Part shown: piece after piece, positions 2,100 through 36,592 of the stretch | Numbering within the stretch: the first letter of the stretch is position 1 | How the letters are laid out: each line of letters begins with the position of its first letter | DNA from: Gammaproteobacteria bacterium | Lineage (GTDB): Bacteria > Pseudomonadota > Gammaproteobacteria > Acidiferrobacterales > Sulfurifustaceae | NCBI GenBank assembly: GCA_029863005.1 | Contig: JAOTWF010000015.1 | Location: 1 to 44,317, forward strand | DNA length: 44,317 bases | Direction: 5' to 3' | The notes under the pieces: generated by a model | Database searches by the model: none | The model's input: only the letters and a program-made list of their open reading frames with translations | Told to the model about the DNA's origin: nothing | Made by a program: the position numbers and the translations under genes

Positions 2100-3233
2100 A
2101 TGAGAATCTTAATCGTCGGTGGTGGCACGGGCGGTACCATTCTGGCGAATCAGCTCGTGCGGCGGCTGAAGGATGAAATTCGCGCCAAAAAGGTCCGGAT
2201 CACCTTGCTGTCTGATTCCGACCGGCACATGTATCAGCCCGGCCTATTGTACGTCGCTTTCGGCCAGATGGCACCGGATCAGCTTTATCGCGATGAAGCG
2301 AGTCTGCTCGAGTCGAGTATCAAATTTCACGTGGACGCGGTCACCGAGTTCCACCTCGACCGGAACCAGGTCAAGACCAAAAGTGGCAAGACCCACGATT
2401 ACGATATTCTCGCGATCGCCACCGGCGCGCGCATCGTGCCGCAGGAAGTGCCCGGCATGAGCGAAGGCGCGGAAACTTTTTACACGGAGGAAGGCGCCAT
2501 CCGCATGCACAAGCGCCTCATGGAATTCAAGGGCGGTACCGTGGCGATGGTGGTATCGATACCCCACAAATGTCCCGTGGCGCCGGTGGAGGCGATGTTC
2601 ATGCTGCACGACTTCTTCAAGATGCGCGGCATCCGCGACAAGGTGAAACTGCAGTACAAGTATCCTGTCAACCACGTCCATGCCACCGCGAACGTTGCCC
2701 GATGGGCCAAACCGGAATTCGACAAGGCCGGCATTGAGTACGAAACCCTGTTCAACGTACGAGAAGTTGACCCGGTCAAGAAGATCGTCTACAGCGAAGA
2801 AGGCACCGAGTGCAAATACGATCTGCTGATTGCTATTCCGCCCCACCGTGGCATGGAAATGATCGAGGCGAACAACCTTGGACAGGGCGGCTGGATCCCC
2901 ACGGACCGTTTCAAGTTGACCATGGACGGTCATGAGAACGTCTATGTGATCGGCGATGCCAGCAATGTTCCGGTCAGCAAGACCGGATCGGCGGCGCATT
3001 TCGAGGCGGAAATCGTCGCCGAGAACATCGCCTCCGTGATCAAGACCGGCGTCCCGGTTCGGGAGTACGACGGCAAGGTGTATTGCTTCATCGAGGCCGG
3101 TTACGATCGCGCCACCTACAACGCCTTCGATTACGTCAATCTGCCCGAGTTGAAGCCTCCGTCCAAAGCCATCCACTGGTTCAAGGTGGCATACAACCAG
3201 TTGTACTGGACCACAGTACGTGGATTGCTCTAA
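2100..3233 (+). CDS. SQR-like FAD-dependent pyridine nucleotide-disulfide oxidoreductase
   Basis: 377 residues. An N-terminal FAD-binding Rossmann motif (ILIVGGGTGGTILA, 3-16), the ATGA segment of the second dinucleotide domain (107-110), and a late FAD contact VYVIGDASNVP (281-291) define the two-dinucleotide-binding fold. HKCPVAPVE (156-164) places Cys158 where sulfide:quinone reductases have their redox Cys; Cys329 (KVYCFIEAGY) can be its partner. The third Cys of classical type I enzymes is not evident. The C-terminus KVAYNQLYWTTVRGLL resembles the membrane-surface helix of SQR relatives. Known SQRs oxidise sulfide to polysulfide and reduce quinone at the inner membrane. The next gene, DUF1641, starts 13 bases after the stop. 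Specific SQR activity is an inference. Confidence 0.85.
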   Translation: MRILIVGGGTGGTILANQLVRRLKDEIRAKKVRITLLSDSDRHMYQPGLLYVAFGQMAPDQLYRDEASLLESSIKFHVDAVTEFHLDRNQVKTKSGKTHDYDILAIATGARIVPQEVPGMSEGAETFYTEEGAIRMHKRLMEFKGGTVAMVVSIPHKCPVAPVEAMFMLHDFFKMRGIRDKVKLQYKYPVNHVHATANVARWAKPEFDKAGIEYETLFNVREVDPVKKIVYSEEGTECKYDLLIAIPPHRGMEMIEANNLGQGGWIPTDRFKLTMDGHENVYVIGDASNVPVSKTGSAAHFEAEIVAENIASVIKTGVPVREYDGKVYCFIEAGYDRATYNAFDYVNLPELKPPSKAIHWFKVAYNQLYWTTVRGLL

Positions 3234-17523: not shown

Positions 17524-17555
17524 AGGATATGCTCCGTACCCCGGTACAGTGTCAA
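17524..17555 (-). promoter_or_regulatory. MerR-type promoter and operator
   Basis: On the minus strand TTGACA (17550-17555) and TATCCT (17524-17529) are 20 bases apart, the long spacing typical of MerR-controlled promoters. Between them lies the dyad CTGTAC-CGGG-GTACGG (17534-17549), nearly the mer operator of Tn501 (CCGTAC-ATGA-GTACGG). The -35 hexamer overlaps the cusA stop codon. It should drive the MerC-like/thioredoxin/merR operon. Confidence 0.8.
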
Positions 17556-20500
17556 GTCGAGTAGATTATTACTGGATTTTTTGCCACCACCCTGAGTTTC
17601 CATAATAAATATGCCGCCGGGATCACAACCAGCGTCAGAATGGCCACACTCAGCATGCCGCCCACCATTGGCGCCGCGATGCGCTGCATGGCCTCCGATC
17701 CGGTACCTTCGCTCCATAAAATCGGCAGCAGGGCGGCGATGATGGCGACCTTGGTCATGGTGACGGGCCGCACTCGCAGGAGGGCGCCCTCAACCACCGC
17801 CTCGTGCACATCATCCCTTGTCAACTTCTGGCCCTTGGTGTGGCGTTCCGTTTCGCGTCGCCGGAGCGCCTGATCGAGATACGCCAGCATCACCACGCCG
17901 ATTTCGACCGCGACACCTCCCAGCGCGATGAAGCCCACGGCAACGGCAACAGACAGGTTGTATCCCAGAAGATATAGCAGCCAGAAGCCACCCACCAGGG
18001 CCAGCGGCAGTGTGGCAATCACGATGAGCACTTCCATGCCGTTGCGAAAATTGAGGTAGAGCAGCAGCAGGATAATGACTAGCGTAAAAGGGATGACGAC
18101 CTTCAGGCGTTCGAGAGCGCGCTGCATGTATTCGAACTGGCCGGCCCAGTGGAGCGAATAGCCCGGCGGCAATTTCACTGTTTTCTCCACTGATCTTTTG
18201 GCGTCGGCCACATAAGAGCCGATGTCACGATCACGCATATCGATATAGGTCCAACCTGACAATCGCGCATTTTCGCTGCGTATCATGTCGGGGCCATCCA
18301 CCACGCGGACGTCGGCCACTTCAGATAGCGCGATCTGGATGCCGCTCATGGTGACCAGCGGCAAGGCGCGCAGGCGGGCGAGCGAACCCCGGATGTCCTG
18401 GGGATAGCGGATATTGACCGGATAACGCTCACGCCCCTCGATGGTATCGGTGACATTCATGCCGCCGACGGCTGTAGCCACGGTTTCCTGGATGTCTGCG
18501 ATGTTCATGCCGAAGCGTGAGGCACGATTTCGGTCGATACGAACGTCCACGTAGCGCGCACCGGTGACACGCTCAGAGTAAACCGAAACCGTCCCCGGGA
18601 CGGAACGTACCGCGGATTCGATTTCCTGGCCGATGATCTCGATGGTGGCGAGCGACGGCCCCGAGACTTTCACGCCAACGGGAGTTCGGATGCCGGTGGT
18701 CAGCATGTCGATGCGCGTCTTGATTGGCATCACGTAGGCATTGGAAAGCCCCGAAAACTTCGTGGCTTGATTCATCTCCTGGATGAGTTTCTTGGTGGTC
18801 ATCCCTGGCCGCCATTCGGACTTCGGTTTCAGCTGTATCGTGGTTTCGAACATGGACAGCGGTGCCGGGTCGGTCGCTGTTTCCGCCCGCCCGCTTTTGC
18901 CGAATACGCTTTCCACTTCGGGGAAGGTCTTGAGTATCCTGTCCGTCTGCTGCAGGAGCTGTTGCGCCTTGCCAGAACCGAGGCTGGGTAGGGTGGTGGG
19001 CATGTACAGGATATCGCCTTCATCCATGTCCGGCATGAATTCAGACCCGAGCTGGACAACGGGATAAGCGCCCAAAACGACGAGAACCACGGCGCCCCAC
19101 AATATCGTTCGAGGACGGGCTAAAGTCCACTTCAGCATCGGCCGGTAGCCGCGTATCAGCCAACGGTTCAGTGGATTTTCCTGCTCGCTGCGTATGTGAC
19201 CACGGATGAAGTAACCCATGAGCACGGGCACGAGTGTGATCGACAGCACCGCGGCGGCAGCCATGGCATAAGTCTTGGTGAAGGCCAGTGGCGAGAACAG
19301 CCGGCCCTCCTGGGCTTCGAGGGCGAACACCGGAATGAAACTCAGCGCGATGATGAGCAGCGAATAGAACAGCGGCGGGCCAAGTTCCTCGGTCGCGGTG
19401 CGGACGATGGCCCAGCGATTTTCGTCGGTGACCTTTTGCTTTTCGAAGTGCTTGTGCACGTTCTCGATCATGACGATGGAGGCGTCCACCATCGCGCCAA
19501 TGGCGATGGCGATGCCGCCGAGCGACATGATATTGGCGTTAATACCTTGTTGTTTCATGATGATGAAACTGATGAGGATGCCGATGGGCAGCGTGACTAT
19601 GACGACCAGCGAGGAGCGCAGATGGAACAGGAATACGAGACAAACTACCGCCACTACGATAAATTCCTCTAAGAGCGTCCCAGTGAGATTGTTAACGGCT
19701 CTTTTTATTACTGCCGAACGGTCATAGGTGGTTACAATCTCAACGCCCTCCGGCAGGCTTTTTCTGAGAATCTCCAGCCTGGCCTTGGTCGCGTTGATGG
19801 TGGCAAGCGCATTCTCCCCGTGACGCATGACAATGATACCACCCGTAACCTCGCCTTCGCCGTTCAGTTCGGCAATCCCGCGGCGCATCTCGGGCCCAAT
19901 CCGAATGTCCGCCACGTGATCCAGACGGATGGGCGCGCCGGAGGACGTGACCCCGAGGGGCAAGGCGCGCAGATCCCTCTCGTTCTTGATATATCCGCGA
20001 ACGCGGATCATGTACTCCGCCTCCGCCATTTCGATGACCGAGCCACCGGTTTCCTGGTTGCCTTCTTTAATGGCCTTGCGCAGCGACTCGAGCGTCAGGC
20101 GGTACGCGCGAAGTTTTACCGGGTCCACGACCACCTGGTATTGCTTCACCATGCCGCCCACGGTCGCGACCTCGGCCACCCCCGGGACCGTGCGCAATTC
20201 GTACTTGAGGAACCAGTCCTGCAATGTCCGAAGTTGCGCCAGGTCATGTTTGCCGGTGTGGTCAATCAGCGCGTATGCGTATACCCAGCCGACCCCCGTG
20301 GCGTCCGGCCCGAGCGCGGGTCGTGCCCCACGCGGCAAGCGCGGCAGGACCTGGCTCAGATACTCGAGCACGCGCGAGCGTGCCCAGTACAAATCCGTGC
20401 CATCCTTGAACAGAACATAGACAAAGGACTCGCCGAACTGGGAAAAACCGCGCACCGTCGTTGCTCCCGGTACCGAGAGCATGGCGGTGGTCAACGGGTA

Positions 20501-20698
20501 GGTCACCTGGTCTTCCACAACCTGCGGCGCTTGGCCTGGGTAACTCGTCTGGATAATGACTTGCACGTCCGAGAGATCGGGAATCGCATCGAGTGGCGTG
20601 CGGGCAACAGCATATATACCCCAGGCCACCAGGATGGCGGTGAGCAACAACACCAGGAAGCGGTTGCGGATCGACCACCGGATGAGGCGAGCGATCAC
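17552..20698 (-). CDS. cusA: CusA/CzcA-type heavy-metal RND efflux pump
   Basis: 1048 residues, full length for heavy-metal-efflux RND pumps, with twelve membrane helices and two large periplasmic loops. The proton-relay helix 4 is intact (GAMVDASIVMIENVH, with Asp and Glu). MPIKTRIDMLTTGIRTPVGV corresponds to the region holding a copper-binding Met in CusA, and Met residues are frequent around it, which favours Cu(I)/Ag(I) over Zn/Co/Ni, but this is not decisive. GFIALGGVAVEIGVVMLAYL and RVRPVTMTKVAIIAALLPIL are conserved family segments. It exports metal across the envelope with CusB and CusC. Start overlaps cusB by four bases (ATGA). The stop overlaps the mer-type promoter. Confidence 0.92.
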   Translation of the reverse strand: MIARLIRWSIRNRFLVLLLTAILVAWGIYAVARTPLDAIPDLSDVQVIIQTSYPGQAPQVVEDQVTYPLTTAMLSVPGATTVRGFSQFGESFVYVLFKDGTDLYWARSRVLEYLSQVLPRLPRGARPALGPDATGVGWVYAYALIDHTGKHDLAQLRTLQDWFLKYELRTVPGVAEVATVGGMVKQYQVVVDPVKLRAYRLTLESLRKAIKEGNQETGGSVIEMAEAEYMIRVRGYIKNERDLRALPLGVTSSGAPIRLDHVADIRIGPEMRRGIAELNGEGEVTGGIIVMRHGENALATINATKARLEILRKSLPEGVEIVTTYDRSAVIKRAVNNLTGTLLEEFIVVAVVCLVFLFHLRSSLVVIVTLPIGILISFIIMKQQGINANIMSLGGIAIAIGAMVDASIVMIENVHKHFEKQKVTDENRWAIVRTATEELGPPLFYSLLIIALSFIPVFALEAQEGRLFSPLAFTKTYAMAAAAVLSITLVPVLMGYFIRGHIRSEQENPLNRWLIRGYRPMLKWTLARPRTILWGAVVLVVLGAYPVVQLGSEFMPDMDEGDILYMPTTLPSLGSGKAQQLLQQTDRILKTFPEVESVFGKSGRAETATDPAPLSMFETTIQLKPKSEWRPGMTTKKLIQEMNQATKFSGLSNAYVMPIKTRIDMLTTGIRTPVGVKVSGPSLATIEIIGQEIESAVRSVPGTVSVYSERVTGARYVDVRIDRNRASRFGMNIADIQETVATAVGGMNVTDTIEGRERYPVNIRYPQDIRGSLARLRALPLVTMSGIQIALSEVADVRVVDGPDMIRSENARLSGWTYIDMRDRDIGSYVADAKRSVEKTVKLPPGYSLHWAGQFEYMQRALERLKVVIPFTLVIILLLLYLNFRNGMEVLIVIATLPLALVGGFWLLYLLGYNLSVAVAVGFIALGGVAVEIGVVMLAYLDQALRRRETERHTKGQKLTRDDVHEAVVEGALLRVRPVTMTKVAIIAALLPILWSEGTGSEAMQRIAAPMVGGMLSVAILTLVVIPAAYLLWKLRVVAKNPVIIYST

Positions 20699-31060: not shown

Positions 31061-31501
31061 ATGCCCGTACCAAGAACACCGGCGTTGACCACGGATATTA
31101 TCATCGAGCTTAAAGACCGTACGGATGTTCCGATTGTGCTGATCCGGCGCAAAAACCCACCACATGGTTGGGCTTTGCCTGGTGGTTTCGTGGATATAGG
31201 AGAATCCTTGGAGCAGGCCGCCGTGCGCGAAGCCGGCGAAGAAACGACATTGCGGGTCAGGCTCAAACTGCTGTTGGGATGTTATTCCGACCCAACACGT
31301 GATCCGCGCCATCACACGGCATCAGTGGTATATGTGGCCGAAGCGGAGGGTGAACCGCGGGCGCAGGATGACGCGGCCGGCGTGGCAATTTTCAGTCCGG
31401 AGGCTTTGCCTTCCCCGCTCGTTTTCGACCACGCGCGGATCCTGAGTGATTACCTGGTTTGGCGCCAGCAGGGGACGCGACCCCTGCCGGAAAATCCTTG
31501 A
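31061..31501 (+). CDS. Nudix hydrolase
   Basis: 146 residues with a perfect Nudix box: GGFVDIGESLEQAAV followed by REAGEET, giving G-x5-E-x7-REU-x-EE. The upstream strand IVLIRRKNPPHGWALPGG is typical of ADP-ribose or nucleotide-sugar pyrophosphatases of the MutT/NudF type; the C-terminal HHTASVVYVAEAEGEPRAQD fits as well. It cleaves nucleoside diphosphates linked to another moiety; the substrate cannot be told from sequence. Start ATG 31061 has AGAGGA upstream. The last 110 bases overlap the 3' end of the opposite-strand mechanosensitive channel gene. Confidence 0.9.
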   Translation: MPVPRTPALTTDIIIELKDRTDVPIVLIRRKNPPHGWALPGGFVDIGESLEQAAVREAGEETTLRVRLKLLLGCYSDPTRDPRHHTASVVYVAEAEGEPRAQDDAAGVAIFSPEALPSPLVFDHARILSDYLVWRQQGTRPLPENP

Positions 31502-32777
31502 TGTAGACATCGCGCTGGGGAAAGGGAAAAGTGATGCCCGCGGCGTGGAAGTCAGTCCACATGGCTTTATACATTTCGGTGCGTATTTCTCCCCTGATGT
31601 CGGGATCACTGAGCCAGACTCGCAGCTCCAAGTTGACGCCGTTGTCACCGTAACCCAGCAGGAAAGCCAGCGGTGGCGGGTTCTTCAGGACGCGTGGATT
31701 TTCCCGCGCGAGCCGCTCCAGCCGCTTCAGTGCCTCCTCCGGTTCGTCGTTGTAACTGATATCCACCGGAAGTCGCAGCCGGATCTTTCTGTCGCCCGCG
31801 TAGGACCAGTTGGTGATGTCGGACGTCAGAAGATTCTCATTCGGCACCAGGATGTCGAGCCCGTCCAGCGTGCGAATGACGATGTGACGCGTGTGCAGCG
31901 CCTTCACGGTTCCATAAGTTTCGCCATAGCTGATGACATCCCCCGGACGGATGGATCCTTCGAAAGCGAGAATAAATCCGCTGACAAAATTGCTTACCAC
32001 GCGCTGCAGGCCTAGGCCGATGCCGACACCCAGTGCTCCGCCAAAGACGGCGAAGGCCGTGATGTCGATGCCCGCCGAAACCATGGCAACGAGCACGGCG
32101 ACGGTGAGCAGAATAAACTTGATGAGCTTGGCCAGCGCAATTTTCATGCTTTCGTCGAGCGCGCGACTGCGTCCTACCCGGCTGCGAATGGCGTTGGACA
32201 GCCACAGGGCGACCAGCAGCATCACGGCAATGGACAGGGCGAAACTCAGGACATTCAGCAGGGACACGCGCACCGTGCCGAAGCTGAAGGCGTATTCGTC
32301 GAGCAGTTGCTCTATCCGAGGAAGCCATCCAAGAATATGGAAGGCAACCAGGGCCCAGATCGTGACTGTGAGCACGCCCTCCCAGGCCTTGAGCGGGCCG
32401 CCGGGATTGAGGCTGTGTCGCAGCACGAATACACCCATGCGGATCACCGCCAGGGCGCCGGCCAGGATCATGGCCGGGCGCAGCAGCGCGGTGTCCCAGC
32501 CGTGATGGCGCAGGACGGCGCTGCCGGCAAGCAGCCACACCCAAAGCATGAGCGGAATCAGGGCCAACGCCCCCGAGCGCATGGCGGTACGACGCATTCC
32601 CTCGTCGATGACGCCGGGCTGGATCATGGTCTGCAGGCGTGGCTGCAGCCAGTGTGCGATGAGCTTGACGACCAGCAACCCGGCGATGAATAGGCCGACC
32701 TGCCACCAAGTAGATGGCGAGTTCAGAAAATCGCGAATTAACTCGCGTGAGGGGAAGATTTGCAGCAGTTCCTGCAT
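31392..32777 (-). CDS. MscS-family mechanosensitive ion channel
   Basis: 461 residues. An N-terminal part with about four extra membrane helices precedes the MscS core. The pore helix is AVFGGALGVGIGLGLQRVVS with the Gly/Ala packing of MscS TM3, followed by the beta domain IRPGDVISYGETYGTVKALH and the alpha/beta domain NENLLTSDITNWSY and VDISYNDEPEEALKRL. Such channels open on membrane tension and release solutes on osmotic downshift. After the family's natural end (ITFPFPQRDVYIKD) there is a 30-residue low-complexity basic tail (SGSARGRKRAGKAK), and it is this tail that overlaps the Nudix gene on the other strand. Confidence 0.9.
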   Translation of the reverse strand: MQELLQIFPSRELIRDFLNSPSTWWQVGLFIAGLLVVKLIAHWLQPRLQTMIQPGVIDEGMRRTAMRSGALALIPLMLWVWLLAGSAVLRHHGWDTALLRPAMILAGALAVIRMGVFVLRHSLNPGGPLKAWEGVLTVTIWALVAFHILGWLPRIEQLLDEYAFSFGTVRVSLLNVLSFALSIAVMLLVALWLSNAIRSRVGRSRALDESMKIALAKLIKFILLTVAVLVAMVSAGIDITAFAVFGGALGVGIGLGLQRVVSNFVSGFILAFEGSIRPGDVISYGETYGTVKALHTRHIVIRTLDGLDILVPNENLLTSDITNWSYAGDRKIRLRLPVDISYNDEPEEALKRLERLARENPRVLKNPPPLAFLLGYGDNGVNLELRVWLSDPDIRGEIRTEMYKAMWTDFHAAGITFPFPQRDVYIKDFPAGVASPAGAKPGNHSGSARGRKRAGKAKPPD

Positions 32778-32842: not shown

Positions 32843-32871
32843 AAAAAAAAGCCCGCGATGCGTTGCGGGCT
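32843..32871 (-). terminator. terminator of the sigma/anti-sigma/DsrE operon
   Basis: On the minus strand AGCCCGC is followed by an 8-base loop, GCGGGCT and a run of eight T (the A tract at 32843-32850). It lies 40 bases after the stop codon of the secreted DsrE-like gene and closes that operon. Confidence 0.85.
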
Positions 32872-32910
32872 GGAGGAGTAGGGCGACTAATTTTTTATTA
32901 GGGCTTTCTA

Positions 32911-33351
32911 TTAGGGCTTTACGTAGGAGTAACCCTGTGACTGAAGGTGGGCGATTTCCGCCACGCCGCTGGGAACGATATCCTTTTCGCCGACGTCATA
33001 AAGATCAGTTTTGTAATTGAGCTTCTTGCCCTTGAGGGTGTTGGCGCAGACGTTGAAATGGATGCCCTGGCGCTTCAGGTTGGCGACCTTGTCCGCCATA
33101 TCTGGTTTCGTTTGCGCCAGCTTCAGCAGCGTGACGCCCGGACCGTGCATGACGACGCGCAGATCGAGGTTTTCCTTTCCTACGGCATTAATGTGATTCT
33201 GGATATTTCTCATGGCACCTGTCAGTTCTTTCTCATCAGCATAGTTGATGTGATAGACGACTTTTTGTTTGCCATAAGCTTCCGCGAAAGCCGCGCTCAG
33301 GCCGCCGAGACTGAGTATGGACATGAGAGCGACGATAAGTAGTTTCCTCAT
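32911..33351 (-). CDS. secreted DsrE-like protein, third gene of ECF sigma operon
   Basis: 146 residues with a signal peptide (KLLIVALMSILSLGGLSAAF, cleavage near AFAEA) and a DsrE-like domain: KVVYHINYADEKELTGAMRN, LRVVMHGPGVTLL, and FNVCANTLKGK with a single Cys102, ending SGVAEIAHLQSQGYSYVKP. The conserved Cys is where DsrE relatives carry a persulfide. The domain aligns well by eye with the periplasmic part of the upstream anti-sigma factor (VACQNTI, SGVAQIMRRQHQGWAYIQV). The ribosome site AGGAGA is followed by the odd ATGTTATGA, a two-codon start-stop overlapping the real ATG. It lies 34 bases behind the anti-sigma gene and 40 before a terminator. I infer a periplasmic sulfur-binding effector or competitor for the sensor. 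Confidence 0.85.
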   Translation of the reverse strand: MRKLLIVALMSILSLGGLSAAFAEAYGKQKVVYHINYADEKELTGAMRNIQNHINAVGKENLDLRVVMHGPGVTLLKLAQTKPDMADKVANLKRQGIHFNVCANTLKGKKLNYKTDLYDVGEKDIVPSGVAEIAHLQSQGYSYVKP

Positions 33352-33385
33352 AACATTTCTCCTGACATAAATGGTTGTAATGTAA

Positions 33386-34099
33386 CTAGACCTGGATATA
33401 GGCCCAGCCCTGGTGTTGCCGGCGCATGATCTGCGCCACGCCAGAGTCGATGACGACCACGCCCGGCAATAGCTTTGCCGTCACGCCTTGTTCCTGCTTG
33501 ACACGATCAATGGTGTTTTGGCAGGCGACGAAGGTGAGGTCGAGATATTCTTTCTGCATACGCTGGATGCGATCGGCGAACGGCGAAACATCCGCCATCA
33601 GCAGGCTCAAACCCGATCCGTTCGTGATCACTTCCACACGCGCTTTTTGATGCGTGCGGCGGTAGAGCTGCATCAGATTTTCCACTTCGTCCAGCACGGT
33701 CTTGAGATGTCCCATTTCGTCGTCGCTGACGTGGAACAGAACCTTGGCCAGGTCTTCAGACCCCGGCTTAGCCTGGGCGACAACGGCATTCTGCGGCGAG
33801 TTTGCCTGCGGATGCAGGAACCACCCGCCCAGGCCGCCGACGACGAGCGCGATCCCGGCAGCGACAGCGGTGGAGCATTTCTGTCTGGTGACGACGGCTG
33901 ACACGCACGGCGCGGGCGCGGGAACATTGCGATAGGCCAAGGCCACCAAGTCACGGACTTTGCGCAGCTCACACACTTGAATGTTGAGCGCCTCGTCTTC
34001 GGCCAGGCGGGCGTAGACCTGCGCTTTTTCTTCAGGCGTCAGTTCGTCGTCCACGAAGGCGCTTATGAATTCATCAGAAAATTTTTGTTCTTTGTTCAT
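33386..34099 (-). CDS. membrane anti-sigma factor with periplasmic DsrE-like sensor domain
   Basis: 237 residues in three parts. Residues 5-60 are an anti-sigma-type domain (FSDEFISAFVDDELTPEEKA, then a helix with QVCELRKVRDLV); the zinc motif His-x3-Cys-x2-Cys is reduced to one Cys43. Residues 77-95 form a membrane helix (AVAAGIALVVGGLGGWFL). Residues 117-237 form a DsrE-like domain with strands AKVLFHVSDDE and ARVEVITNGSG, Cys193 in TFVACQNTID, and a C-terminus matching the secreted protein encoded next. The cytoplasmic part should hold the ECF sigma factor inactive; the periplasmic part should sense. Start ATG overlaps the sigma gene stop (ATGA). I know of no described anti-sigma factor with this sensor, but that needs a search. 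Confidence 0.85.
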   Translation of the reverse strand: MNKEQKFSDEFISAFVDDELTPEEKAQVYARLAEDEALNIQVCELRKVRDLVALAYRNVPAPAPCVSAVVTRQKCSTAVAAGIALVVGGLGGWFLHPQANSPQNAVVAQAKPGSEDLAKVLFHVSDDEMGHLKTVLDEVENLMQLYRRTHQKARVEVITNGSGLSLLMADVSPFADRIQRMQKEYLDLTFVACQNTIDRVKQEQGVTAKLLPGVVVIDSGVAQIMRRQHQGWAYIQV

Positions 34100-34647
34100 T
34101 TGATTCTCCGGAGTTTAACTTCATCGGCAGCGACTCTCGGTGCCAGCTCAGTCAACAGATCCTTGAGAGCATATCGCGCCCGACACAGGCGACTCATGAC
34201 GGTGCCGATCGGAACGTTCAGGATCTGCGCCACTTCCATATAGCTGAGTCCTTGGATGTCCACCAGGGTAACGACCTGGCGTTGTCCTTCCGCTAATTTG
34301 GCGATGGCCGCCCTCACTTTGAGGACGATTTCCTGCTCACTGCTCTCCTTCTCCGGGGTGGATTCATGAATTATTGTATTTTCATCGACTTCTTCCGTCG
34401 CGCGCTGGCGCCGGAAATGATCGCGGTAACAATTCGCCAGGATGCTGTACAGCCAGGCATCCCCCGCGCTTGGATCGCGCAGCTGGCTGGACTTTCGCAA
34501 GGCCTTCGCCAGGGTTTCCTGCACTAGGTCATCGGCCAGCGCCGTGCTGTGTGTCCAGGCGTAGGCAATGCGATAAAGCCGCTGACGATGCTGCTCCAGT
34601 ATTGCCTTGGATTCGCGGCTGCGACCAAAAAAGTGAAAAACATCCAT
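34096..34647 (-). CDS. ECF-family RNA polymerase sigma factor
   Basis: 183 residues, with region 2 (LYRIAYAWTHSTALADDLVQ, then ETLAKAL, then DAWLYSILANCYRDHFRR) and region 4 (LSYMEVAQILNVPIGTVMSR followed by LCRARYAL), joined by a charged linker. This is the standard two-domain extracytoplasmic-function sigma factor that redirects RNA polymerase to a small regulon. Its gene overlaps that of a membrane anti-sigma factor by four bases, so the pair is made together. A promoter of ECF type lies upstream at 34688-34715, suggesting autoregulation. ATG 34647 has only a weak ribosome site. Confidence 0.93.
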   Translation of the reverse strand: MDVFHFFGRSRESKAILEQHRQRLYRIAYAWTHSTALADDLVQETLAKALRKSSQLRDPSAGDAWLYSILANCYRDHFRRQRATEEVDENTIIHESTPEKESSEQEIVLKVRAAIAKLAEGQRQVVTLVDIQGLSYMEVAQILNVPIGTVMSRLCRARYALKDLLTELAPRVAADEVKLRRIK

Positions 34648-34687
34648 TCGGTAAACTGTTATTTCCGGTTGAGAAACCTAATAAGGG

Positions 34688-34715
34688 AGACGGGAGGACA
34701 TGCGGGTTTATTCCC
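34688..34715 (-). promoter_or_regulatory. candidate ECF sigma autoregulatory promoter
   Basis: Minus strand GGGAATAAACCC (34704-34715) contains GGAAT, a typical ECF -35 core, and CGTCT (34688-34692) follows 17 bases later, a typical ECF -10. The transcript would start about 35 bases upstream of the sigma gene. Confidence 0.55.
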
Positions 34716-34752: not shown

Positions 34753-35412
34753 TCACCTTGTTTCGGGTTTATTGAGAGAAATATCTTCTTCGATCAGGCC
34801 CTGTTCCGGACGCCGTTGACCATCGAGGAGCACACGCCCCTGATCCACCGAGAGCCGGTTATTCAGAAACCATTCAATCGCTAGGGGATATATCCGGTGT
34901 TCTTCGGCCAGCACGCGTTCGGCCAAGATTTCAGGTGTATCGTCGGGTAAGACCGGGACCGAGGCTTGAATGATCACCGGACCGCCATCCACCTCGTGCG
35001 TAACGAAATGCACACTGGCGCCATGGAATTTCGCTCCGCCCGCCAAGGCGCGGGCATGAGTGTTAAGTCCTGGAAACGCCGGCAACAGCGAAGGGTGAAT
35101 GTTCATAAGGCGTTCGTGGTAATGACCGATGAAGGCATCGCTCAGGATGCGCATGAAGCCGGCGAGCGTCACCAACCGCGGCTGGTAGGCATCGATTTGC
35201 TGCATGAGCGCGTGATCAAACTCCTCGCGTGACGGGTAATCGCGATGATCGATGACGTGCACCGGGATCCCGGCCGTGCGTGCGCGGGCCACGGCCGGCG
35301 CTCCGGGTTCATTGCTGATAACGGCAAGTATTTCAGCCGGCAATTTCCCATCGCGTATCGCATTGATGAGAGCTTGCAGATTGCTTCCGCGCCCCGATAC
35401 CAGAATTACCAC
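34753..35412 (-). CDS. purN: phosphoribosylglycinamide formyltransferase
   Basis: 219 residues from GTG 35412. VVILVSGRGSNLQALI is the phosphate-binding start of GART proteins; LAGFMRILSDAFI, MNIHPSLLPAFPGL (catalytic Asn and His) and THEVDGGPVIIQ (catalytic Asp) complete the active site. It transfers a formyl group from 10-formyl-THF to GAR in purine synthesis. The start is uncertain: the frame stays open to 35592 inside purM, but only TTG codons (35475, 35592) occur upstream and that stretch is not conserved-looking. The C-terminus is a little longer than in E. coli (212 residues). It follows purM in the usual order. Confidence 0.92.
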   Translation of the reverse strand: MVILVSGRGSNLQALINAIRDGKLPAEILAVISNEPGAPAVARARTAGIPVHVIDHRDYPSREEFDHALMQQIDAYQPRLVTLAGFMRILSDAFIGHYHERLMNIHPSLLPAFPGLNTHARALAGGAKFHGASVHFVTHEVDGGPVIIQASVPVLPDDTPEILAERVLAEEHRIYPLAIEWFLNNRLSVDQGRVLLDGQRRPEQGLIEEDISLNKPETR

Positions 35413-35548
35413 GCCATTCCGGGGCGTTCCATGTCTGGGGGCGGACTGATTTGTTGATGAATGCGGTAATGTCAAAATGGTGTGTTCTTTCTGGAGCGTC
35501 CGACCGCCATTGCCTATAGAGCTTTCGTCTCGGGCCGTGGCGCTATGT

Positions 35549-36592
35549 TTAATTGAGAATGACGACCTGATCTTCTTCCGAGCGTGTCTCAACGTGACCG
35601 ATGATGGTCGCGGATTCTCCTGCCGCGGTCAGGAGCTTCAAGGCTTTCTCGGCGTCGCCCGCGTCAAGCGCCAGCACCATGCCAACTCCACAATTGAAGG
35701 TGCGATACATCTCGAAGTCCTCGACCCCGCCCATCTCCTGCAACCAGTCGAATACGGGGGGACGTTTCCAGGCACGAGCATCGATCACAGCGCACATTCC
35801 TGCGGGCAGGACGCGCGGTACGTTCCCGGGCAATCCGCCGCCTGTGATATGCGCCGCAGCATGTACCGGAAGCTCACGCAGAAGTCCGAGCAGCGGTTTG
35901 ACATAGATGCGTGTGGGTTCCAGCAGTATTTCTCCCAGGGGACGTTTGTCCAGAGCTTGATTGAGTTCGATCTTACGCAGCTTGATAATTTTGCGGATAA
36001 GCGAATAGCCGTTGGAATGTGGTCCGCTGGAGGCGATGCCAATAAGTGTGTCGTTGTTCTTGACCATTGATCCATCGATGATTTTTGATTTCTCCACAAC
36101 ACCCACAGTGAAACCCGCCAGATCGTAGTCACCCTCGCTGTACATCCCTGGCATTTCGGCGGTTTCGCCACCCACGAGCGCGCAGCCGGCTTGGCGGCAA
36201 CCTTCGCCGATACCCTTGATCACTTGCTCGGCGATAGGCTTATCGAGTTTGCCTGTGGCGAAATAATCGAGGAAAAAAAGGGGCTCGGCGCCTTGAACGA
36301 TAATATCGTTCACACACATCCCCACCAGATCGATGCCGATGGTATCGTGACGCTTAAGCTCGATGGCGAGCTTGAGTTTGGTGCCGACGCCGTCGGTGCT
36401 TGAGACCAGCACCGGCTCGCGGTATTGGCCCGGGGGAATCTCGAACATGGCCCCGAAACCGCCAACCCCCGCCAGCACTCCGGGCCGTTGGGTGGTACCC
36501 GCAATCGGCCGGATGGCCTCGACCAGGGCATCGCCGGCATCGATGTCCACGCCGGCATCGCGGTAGGTGAGGGAAATACGCGGTTTGTTCAA
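35549..36592 (-). CDS. purM: phosphoribosylformylglycinamidine cyclo-ligase
   Basis: 347 residues, normal length. The N-terminal [20 protein letters not shown], the ATP-binding [29 protein letters not shown], and [14 protein letters not shown] are the AIR synthetase signature; [16 protein letters not shown] and FNCGVGMVL lie in the C-terminal half. It closes the imidazole ring in purine synthesis using ATP. The start is TTG 36592 with GGAG 7 bases upstream; no better codon exists. purN follows after about 136 bases (or overlaps it if a far-upstream purN start is used). Confidence 0.94.

What the first reader, a model, noticed from the sequence alone, without database searches (positions are those of the whole stretch)
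32843..34715. ECF sigma factor, anti-sigma factor with a DsrE sensor domain, and a secreted DsrE paralogue in one operon
Seen: three closely packed minus-strand genes (4-base overlap, then 34 bases) with an ECF-type promoter in front and a terminator behind. The anti-sigma protein has a membrane helix and then a DsrE-like domain whose end (VACQNTI, SGVAQIMRRQHQGWAYIQV) matches the secreted third protein (NVCANTL, SGVAEIAHLQSQGYSYVKP), each with one conserved Cys. Known: DsrE folds assemble into oligomers and carry persulfide on Cys. Inference: the two domains form mixed oligomers or compete for a sulfane-sulfur or thiophilic signal in the periplasm, and this releases the sigma factor. I know of no described anti-sigma factor with this sensor.
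Basis: partly seen in the sequence, partly recalled or inferred. Interest (0 to 1): 0.85.

Follow-up and report, generated by a model that had tools for sequence, protein, structure and literature searches.

The report
Sulfur-sensing switch for thiosulfate-oxidation genes
Three neighbouring genes form a sensing circuit, common in sulfur-oxidizing bacteria of one large class but apparently not yet described, in which a membrane protein with a sulfur-handling domain outside the cell membrane appears to hold back a transcription factor that switches on the genes for burning thiosulfate.

Summary
The window holds an ECF sigma factor, a membrane anti-sigma factor with a periplasmic DsrE domain, and a secreted DsrE protein. 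Anti-sigma-DsrE occurs in 66 of 369 sampled genomes of the class (counted by hand). Among 102 such genes fetched, sigma is adjacent in 101 and a DsrE gene in 70. The domain's cysteine is kept in 46 of 46 rows. A GGAATA-N15/16-CGT(C/T) promoter precedes sigma in 35 of 46 and 45 of 62 loci (under 0.1 expected). A stricter form precedes soxB in this genome, and soxB, soxX, soxY and sulfur-transporter genes in relatives. SoxB occurs in 65 of 66 system genomes against 84 of 303 others; of 57 soxB loci counted, the motif lies upstream in 23 of 42 with the system and 0 of 15 without. Best reading: a periplasmic sulfur sensor that controls thiosulfate oxidation. Cysteine modification, mixed DsrE oligomers and sigma release are inferred, not shown. 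No earlier description was found in the held library.

The parts
34688..34715 (-). predicted autoregulatory ECF promoter, GGGAATAAAC-N13-CGTCT
   Evidence: exact form once in genome; GGAATA-N15/16-CGT(C/T) upstream of sigma in 35 of 46 and 45 of 62 homologous loci, 0.04 and 0.06 expected by dinucleotide shuffle
34096..34647 (-). ECF sigma factor, 183 aa
   Evidence: Pfam Sigma70_r2 E=5e-15, Sigma70_r4_2 E=3.5e-16; NCBIfam sigma70-ECF over cut-off
33386..34099 (-). anti-sigma factor, 237 aa: cytoplasmic anti-sigma region (about 1-60), membrane helix (about 78-95), periplasmic DsrE domain (about 117-237) with Cys193
32911..33351 (-). secreted DsrE protein, 146 aa, with signal-like N-terminus and Cys102
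   Evidence: Pfam DsrE 44.9 bits; model Z 18.6 to 1l1s; hydrophobic N-terminal stretch in 33 of 35 homologues
32843..32870 (-). probable intrinsic terminator (GC hairpin and T8)
   Evidence: read by eye

Best explanation
The operon is an autoregulated transmembrane signalling unit that controls thiosulfate/sulfur oxidation. Without signal, the membrane anti-sigma factor holds the ECF sigma factor. Its periplasmic DsrE domain is the sensor: a reduced sulfur species in the periplasm (most likely sulfane sulfur, polysulfide, or a thiosulfonate from tetrathionate or the Sox cycle) is bound or carried on Cys193, probably passed on or buffered by the secreted DsrE protein through its Cys102. The change in the periplasmic domain releases the sigma factor, which transcribes its own operon and sox and sulfur-transport genes from GGAATAWW-N14-CGTCT promoters. 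Supported by computation here: architecture, fold, conservation, gene linkage, promoter, predicted regulon, co-occurrence with SoxB. Inferred: the signal molecule, cysteine chemistry, contact between the two DsrE domains, and the release mechanism (proteolysis or conformational change).
For: Fold. Cys193 in 46 of 46 rows, Cys102 in 34 of 36 (one genome is in each set twice); each lies at the end of the third strand of its model (E188-193, E98-102). Gene linkage: sigma adjacent 101 of 102; DsrE adjacent 70 of 102, in two layouts. Promoter: 35 of 46 and 45 of 62 sigma genes; in the class set DsrE genes divergent from sigma have their own motif in 18 of 35, those on the same strand in 1 of 14. 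Regulon, 8 genomes of the order, 40 motif hits (5 for the reversed pattern): 8 sigma (one per genome), 2 soxB (one in the window's own genome), 2 soxX, 1 soxY, 4 Sulf_transp, 4 YeiH-type, 1 DsrE, 2 thioredoxin-like, 16 other or no gene. 8 genomes of other families, 25 hits (7 reversed): 4 sigma, 2 soxB, 2 soxX, 1 Sulf_transp, 1 DsrE-like, 1 thioredoxin-like, 1 porin-like, 13 other. SoxB in 65 of 66 system genomes against 84 of 303 others, Fisher p=3e-29. soxB upstream motif 23 of 42 against 0 of 15, p=8e-5.
Against: No expression, binding or chemical data. 19 of 42 system genomes show no motif within 420 bases upstream of soxB; operon position may explain some, not checked. In the second census 13 of 25 hits look unrelated, G179 and G192 gave no sigma or sulfur gene at all, and one counted hit (L272, Sulf_transp) lies 275 bases upstream inside an open frame. 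In the window's own genome only soxB and the sigma operon have a clear target gene; the third hit (L188) has none. The six divergent DsrE genes of the order set have no motif (0 of 6), and 11 of 46 and 17 of 62 sigma genes lack it. Genomes are related by descent, so Fisher p-values are too small (the 66 genomes are from 40 families, counted by hand). Cys43 (37 of 46) leaves a cytoplasmic thiol sensor possible. The anti-sigma region itself matches only below cut-off (zf-HC2 E=0.004; NCBIfam antisigma E=7.5e-4).
Confidence: 0.72

Rival explanations
1. Envelope or thiol/disulfide stress response: the DsrE domain reads periplasmic redox state or reactive sulfur as a toxin, and sox genes are induced to detoxify rather than to gain energy.
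For: Thioredoxin-like genes (L186, L193, L277) and a cytochrome c' gene (L200) carry the motif; Cys43 kept in 37 of 46 rows; ECF systems commonly serve stress (recalled).
Against: Core thiosulfate-oxidation and sulfur-transport genes are the largest class of non-sigma targets in the order census; SoxB in 65 of 66 system genomes.
Confidence: 0.15
2. The DsrE domain is not a chemical sensor but a docking or oligomerization platform; the true input is the secreted DsrE protein or a protease, much as separate periplasmic sensors feed some ECF systems (recalled).
For: A DsrE gene is adjacent in 70 of 102 cases, in two arrangements; the secreted protein has its own cysteine in 34 of 36 rows; DsrE-fold proteins form hetero-oligomers (DsrEFH and TusBCD entries).
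Against: Cys193 is kept in 46 of 46 rows, also where no DsrE gene is adjacent (L045-L049) or the neighbour has lost its cysteine (L050), so the domain seems to keep a function of its own there.
Confidence: 0.25
3. The motif hits are a shared ECF-type promoter used by another sigma factor, and the link to sox genes is indirect.
For: GAA and GT elements are common in ECF promoters (PMC3511301, passage); 13 of 25 hits in the second census look unrelated.
Against: The motif is upstream of the sigma gene itself in all 8 genomes of the order census and upstream of soxB in 0 of 15 examined loci of genomes that lack the system.
Confidence: 0.1

Closest known systems
Sinorhizobium meliloti RpoE1/RpoE4 with anti-sigma factors (ECF26; PMC3511301, passages read)
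   Same: ECF sigma and anti-sigma pair that controls inorganic sulfur oxidation (sulfite oxidase sorT); activated when thiosulfate or taurine is metabolized
   Different: Alphaproteobacterial; anti-sigma described as COG5662 type, and the only match to the letters DsrE in that text was DsRed in a reference; targets sulfite oxidation, not the sox thiosulfate system; signal proposed to be sulfite
Hyphomicrobium denitrificans SoxR and sHdrR (PMC10451225, passages read)
   Same: sulfane-sulfur-responsive control of sox genes through cysteine modification
   Different: ArsR-type DNA-binding repressors; no sigma factor, membrane sensor or DsrE sensor domain in the passages read
TspS/TspR sigma54 two-component system of Acidithiobacillus caldus (PMC12194929, passages read)
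   Same: signal-dependent control of sox genes in a sulfur oxidizer
   Different: two-component system with sigma54 instead of an ECF/anti-sigma pair
MTH1491 (1l1s), ST0148 (2pd2) and DsrEFH/TusBCD structures
   Same: fold of both DsrE domains; MTH1491 also shares the C-terminal signature (SGV..I.RRQ..GWAYI) of the anti-sigma domain
   Different: stand-alone or complexed proteins, not part of an anti-sigma factor
DsrE3A/TusA of Metallosphaera cuprina (PMC4175335, abstract and passages read)
   Same: a DsrE-like protein takes up thiosulfate from tetrathionate on cysteine, passes it to a partner and forms a heterocomplex: a chemical precedent for the proposed signal
   Different: sulfur-trafficking proteins, not a signalling system; DsrE3A did not react with polysulfide, thiosulfate or sulfite

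Membership tests
ECF sigma factor | regions 2 and 4, no region 3 | tested here: met
   Pfam Sigma70_r2 and r4_2, 183 aa, no region 3 match listed; NCBIfam sigma70-ECF over cut-off
ECF sigma factor | GGAAT/CGT-type promoter upstream of its own gene | tested here: met
   present in the window and in 35 of 46 and 45 of 62 loci; activity not shown
ECF26 group | group assignment by sigma sequence | not tested
   no ECF group models on hand; the ECF reclassification paper is not held
membrane class I anti-sigma factor | encoded directly downstream of the sigma gene | tested here: met
   in the window and in 101 of 102 fetched cases
membrane class I anti-sigma factor | N-terminal anti-sigma domain | tested here: inconclusive
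   matches below cut-off; helical N-terminus with high pLDDT; N-terminal region not compared by fold on its own
membrane class I anti-sigma factor | single membrane helix, N-terminus inside | tested here: met
   hydrophobic window 45 of 45, more positive on the N side 43 of 45 (simple hydropathy only)
membrane class I anti-sigma factor | binds its sigma factor | not testable with these tools
   needs biochemistry
zinc-binding anti-sigma (ZAS) | HxxxCxxC motif (recalled) | tested here: not met
   motif absent from the window protein; no His before residue 95 and one Cys before residue 60
DsrE/DsrF-like family, anti-sigma C-terminus | profile match over Pfam cut-off | tested here: not met
   14.6 bits against 22.7
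DsrE/DsrF-like fold, anti-sigma C-terminus | homology and fold to solved DsrE-fold proteins | tested here: met
   E=1.8e-11 to 1l1s; Z 18.7, 1.6 A, 110 residues; 99.5% profile match to the third protein
DsrE/DsrF-like family, third protein | profile match over Pfam cut-off | tested here: met
   44.9 bits against 22.7
DsrE/DsrF-like family | conserved cysteine after the third strand (family feature recalled) | tested here: met
   46 of 46 and 34 of 36 rows; strands
DsrE/DsrF-like family | sulfur transfer on the cysteine | not testable with these tools
   needs biochemistry

The most novel reading that the evidence does not exclude
Signalling by sulfur transfer: the secreted DsrE protein picks up a sulfur group in the periplasm and hands it to Cys193 of the anti-sigma DsrE domain within a mixed oligomer, so that a sulfurtransferase relay, not ligand binding, is the transmembrane signal that turns on sox genes in a large share of sulfur-oxidizing Gammaproteobacteria.
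Probability: 0.35. Interest if true: 0.92.

Novelty: new variant of a known kind. Interest (0 to 1): 0.83.

Why it matters
How sulfur-oxidizing bacteria sense thiosulfate is largely open: the abstract of PMC10451225 says little is known, and its discussion suggests that dedicated sulfur oxidizers with a truncated Sox system, such as purple sulfur bacteria, have little need for elaborate transcriptional control (passages). An ECF/anti-sigma-DsrE circuit found in 66 of 369 sampled genomes of the class, 65 of them with SoxB, would supply a sensor, a promoter and a regulon at once. It would give DsrE-fold proteins a sensing role and offer a part for building sulfur biosensors.

Tried and rejected
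Pfam alone would have missed the DsrE domain of the anti-sigma; structure-sequence and fold searches settled it. The hit of the third protein to NCBIfam XopAF (E=0.0011, 18.9 bits against a cut-off of 200) was rejected as chance. In the phylum sample 17 of 398 genomes passed 1e-25; 14 of them have DsrE proteins without an anti-sigma part or a sigma gene beside them and were not counted as the system. A first soxB upstream count (15 of 30 and 3 of 28) misplaced several start sites and was replaced. That call saw 58 soxB loci, the best 30 of each of two searches, not every soxB; L250 (G007) has the motif but was left out of the table because its upstream stretch was under 200 bases. The 40 order loci were picked from the matches to the window protein and the 60 class loci from the full-length matches, so they are not a random sample of genomes. 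The 66 genomes were read by hand from the listing, which was cut at E about 4e-16 and scored at most 7 candidates a genome. SoxB-positive means E<=1e-130; G154 is below the family cut-off, so 64 of 66 by the strict cut-off. The 8 genomes of the second census were chosen by me among system genomes. The binomial values assume 20 or 40 sulfur genes per 2,500 and are illustrative. ECF group assignment could not be tested. Literature searches cover only the held open-licence library, and longer lists were shown in part (search 11: 20 of 22; search 65: 20 of 106; search 89: 15 of 22; search 95: 10 of 349), so absence there is not proof of novelty.

Full report
What is there. The minus strand of the window carries, between purN (34753-35592) and an MscS-type channel gene (31392-32777), an ECF sigma factor (34096-34647), an anti-sigma factor (33386-34099) and a secreted protein (32911-33351), with a promoter-like motif at 34715-34688 and a terminator-like hairpin at 32870-32843.

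The DsrE domain. Pfam sees DsrE over its cut-off only in the secreted protein (44.9 bits; the anti-sigma has 14.6 against a cut-off of 22.7). Against solved structures, residues 119-236 of the anti-sigma match MTH1491 (1l1s) at E=1.8e-11 and the secreted protein matches it at 2.3e-10. Predicted models have pLDDT of about 92-98 over both domains and match 1l1s at Z 18.7 (1.6 A, 110 residues) and Z 18.6 (1.5 A, 111 residues). Profile against profile, the two families match at 99.5%. Between the N-terminal helices and the DsrE domain lies one hydrophobic stretch: 45 of 45 homologues, with 43 of 45 more positive on the N side, which puts DsrE in the periplasm (a simple hydropathy test).

Conservation of residues. 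In 46 rows of anti-sigma proteins Cys193 and Trp232 are invariant; Cys43 of the cytoplasmic part is kept in 37. In 36 rows of secreted DsrE proteins Cys102 is kept in 34. One genome is in each set twice; it supplies both of the DsrE rows without the cysteine (L018, L050).

Distribution. Of 23 loci returned from genome contigs, 22 match over nearly the whole protein; the records include Sulfuricaulis sp., Candidatus Muproteobacteria and Acidiferrobacterales. The Sulfuricaulis record (L075) has the contig length and place of G005, a genome of the window's genus, so the window very likely comes from that genus of sulfur oxidizers. In a sample of the class, 66 of 369 genomes have a full-length anti-sigma-DsrE (counted by hand; 40 families). 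In a sample of the phylum, 3 of 398 do, all three of the same class; the 14 others above 1e-25 have DsrE proteins without an anti-sigma part.

Gene order. Over 100 fetched loci with 102 anti-sigma-DsrE genes, the sigma gene is adjacent in 101. A DsrE gene is directly downstream in 35 and divergent, upstream of sigma, in 35; none was scored in 32. In the class set, 25 of 35 divergent DsrE genes are followed on the same strand by a gene of more than 300 codons, 21 of them with a shared [N/D]W start motif. Of ten such products scanned, five reach a Pfam porin cut-off, one of them barely. Two loci carry both layouts in tandem (L123, L124).

Promoter. GGAATA, 15-16 bases, then CGT(C/T) lies within 220 bases upstream of the sigma gene in 35 of 46 loci of the first set and 45 of 62 of the second; dinucleotide shuffles give 0.04 and 0.06. 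In the class set, DsrE genes divergent from sigma have their own copy in 18 of 35, those on the same strand in 1 of 14. In the order set same-strand DsrE genes have it in 2 of 28 and divergent ones in 0 of 6.

Predicted regulon. A scan for GGAATAW-N15-CGTC in 8 genomes of the order gave 40 hits (5 for the reversed pattern). Their downstream genes: the sigma gene in each of the 8 genomes; soxB in 2, one of them the window's own genome; soxX in 2; soxY in 1; a Sulf_transp transporter in 4; a YeiH-type transporter in 4; a further DsrE protein in 1; thioredoxin-like proteins in 2; the other 16 have other genes or no clear gene. In 8 genomes of other families, chosen among those with the system, 25 hits (7 reversed) include 4 sigma genes, 2 soxB, 2 soxX, 1 Sulf_transp, 1 DsrE-like, 1 thioredoxin-like and 1 porin-like gene; 13 are other, and G179 and G192 gave nothing relevant. 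The soxB and soxX calls exceed the NCBIfam cut-offs; soxY has 114.5 bits against 125 but exceeds Pfam's; the YeiH-type genes exceed Pfam PF03601 but not NCBIfam TIGR00698; the DsrE protein of L205 is just over Pfam's cut-off; L292 matches only my own DsrE profile.

Tests of the link to sulfur oxidation. SoxB is present in 65 of the 66 genomes with the system and in 84 of the 303 without (Fisher p=3e-29, not corrected for kinship). Among the 57 soxB loci counted, the motif lies within 420 bases upstream in 23 of 42 from genomes with the system and 0 of 15 from genomes without (p=8e-5). The second comparison argues against a merely shared habitat.

Mechanism. Computed here: architecture, fold, invariant cysteine, gene linkage, an autoregulatory-type promoter and a sulfur-oxidation regulon. 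Inferred: that Cys193 takes up a sulfur group, that the secreted DsrE delivers or buffers it, and that this frees the sigma factor. A DsrE-like protein that binds thiosulfate from tetrathionate on cysteine and passes it on is known from Metallosphaera cuprina; it did not react with polysulfide, thiosulfate or sulfite (PMC4175335, abstract and passages). The secreted DsrE is probably a modulator rather than an absolute requirement, since it is not always adjacent and has lost its cysteine in one genome; whether such genomes have a usable DsrE elsewhere was not followed.

Compared with the known. The nearest functional relative I found is the S. meliloti RpoE1/RpoE4 system, which controls sulfite oxidation (PMC3511301, passages). 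Known sox regulators include ArsR-type repressors (SoxR, sHdrR; PMC10451225, passages) and a sigma54 two-component system (PMC12194929, passages). The paper that classifies class I anti-sigma factors does not contain the words DsrE, sulfur or thiosulfate in its main text (PMC7406223, text search). Searches showed no description of an anti-sigma-DsrE factor or of sox control by an ECF sigma in this class; the library holds open-licence papers only and some lists were shown in part.

Verdict. A real, conserved and apparently undescribed signalling system: a new variant of ECF/anti-sigma signalling with a new sensor domain and a sulfur-oxidation regulon.

Noticed in passing
L127:4451-5881, L137:9302-10642, L175:9075-10418, L177:9123-10541 and others: A porin-like protein of roughly 430-540 aa, mature start near [N/D]WLMLQGTE, follows the divergent secreted DsrE gene in 25 of 35 cases of the class set; five of ten scanned reach a Pfam porin cut-off. 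A candidate sulfur-compound porin or signal component.
   Followed up: partly
L201, L204, L207, L209: YeiH-type transporters (Pfam PF03601 over cut-off, TIGR00698 below it) carry the same promoter motif in four genomes of the window's genus, suggesting that this poorly understood family works in sulfur oxidation.
   Followed up: partly
window 2100-3233 (+): Type III sulfide:quinone reductase-like gene (NF049943 325.7 bits, below its cut-off of 525) elsewhere in the window, in keeping with a sulfur oxidizer.
   Followed up: partly
L050 (same genome as L018) and L045-L049: In one family of the order the neighbouring secreted DsrE has lost its cysteine or is not adjacent, while the anti-sigma cysteine is kept: a natural experiment on what the partner does.
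   Followed up: partly
L306-L322: Genomes of the phylum outside the class carry DsrE proteins close to the sensor domain, most with a signal-like N-terminus, sometimes two in tandem (L316, L322), without an anti-sigma part.
   Followed up: partly
window 17552-20698 (-): CusA/CzcA family heavy-metal efflux pump gene (TIGR00914 over cut-off), with neighbouring genes that look like its partners and a regulator (not tested).
   Followed up: no
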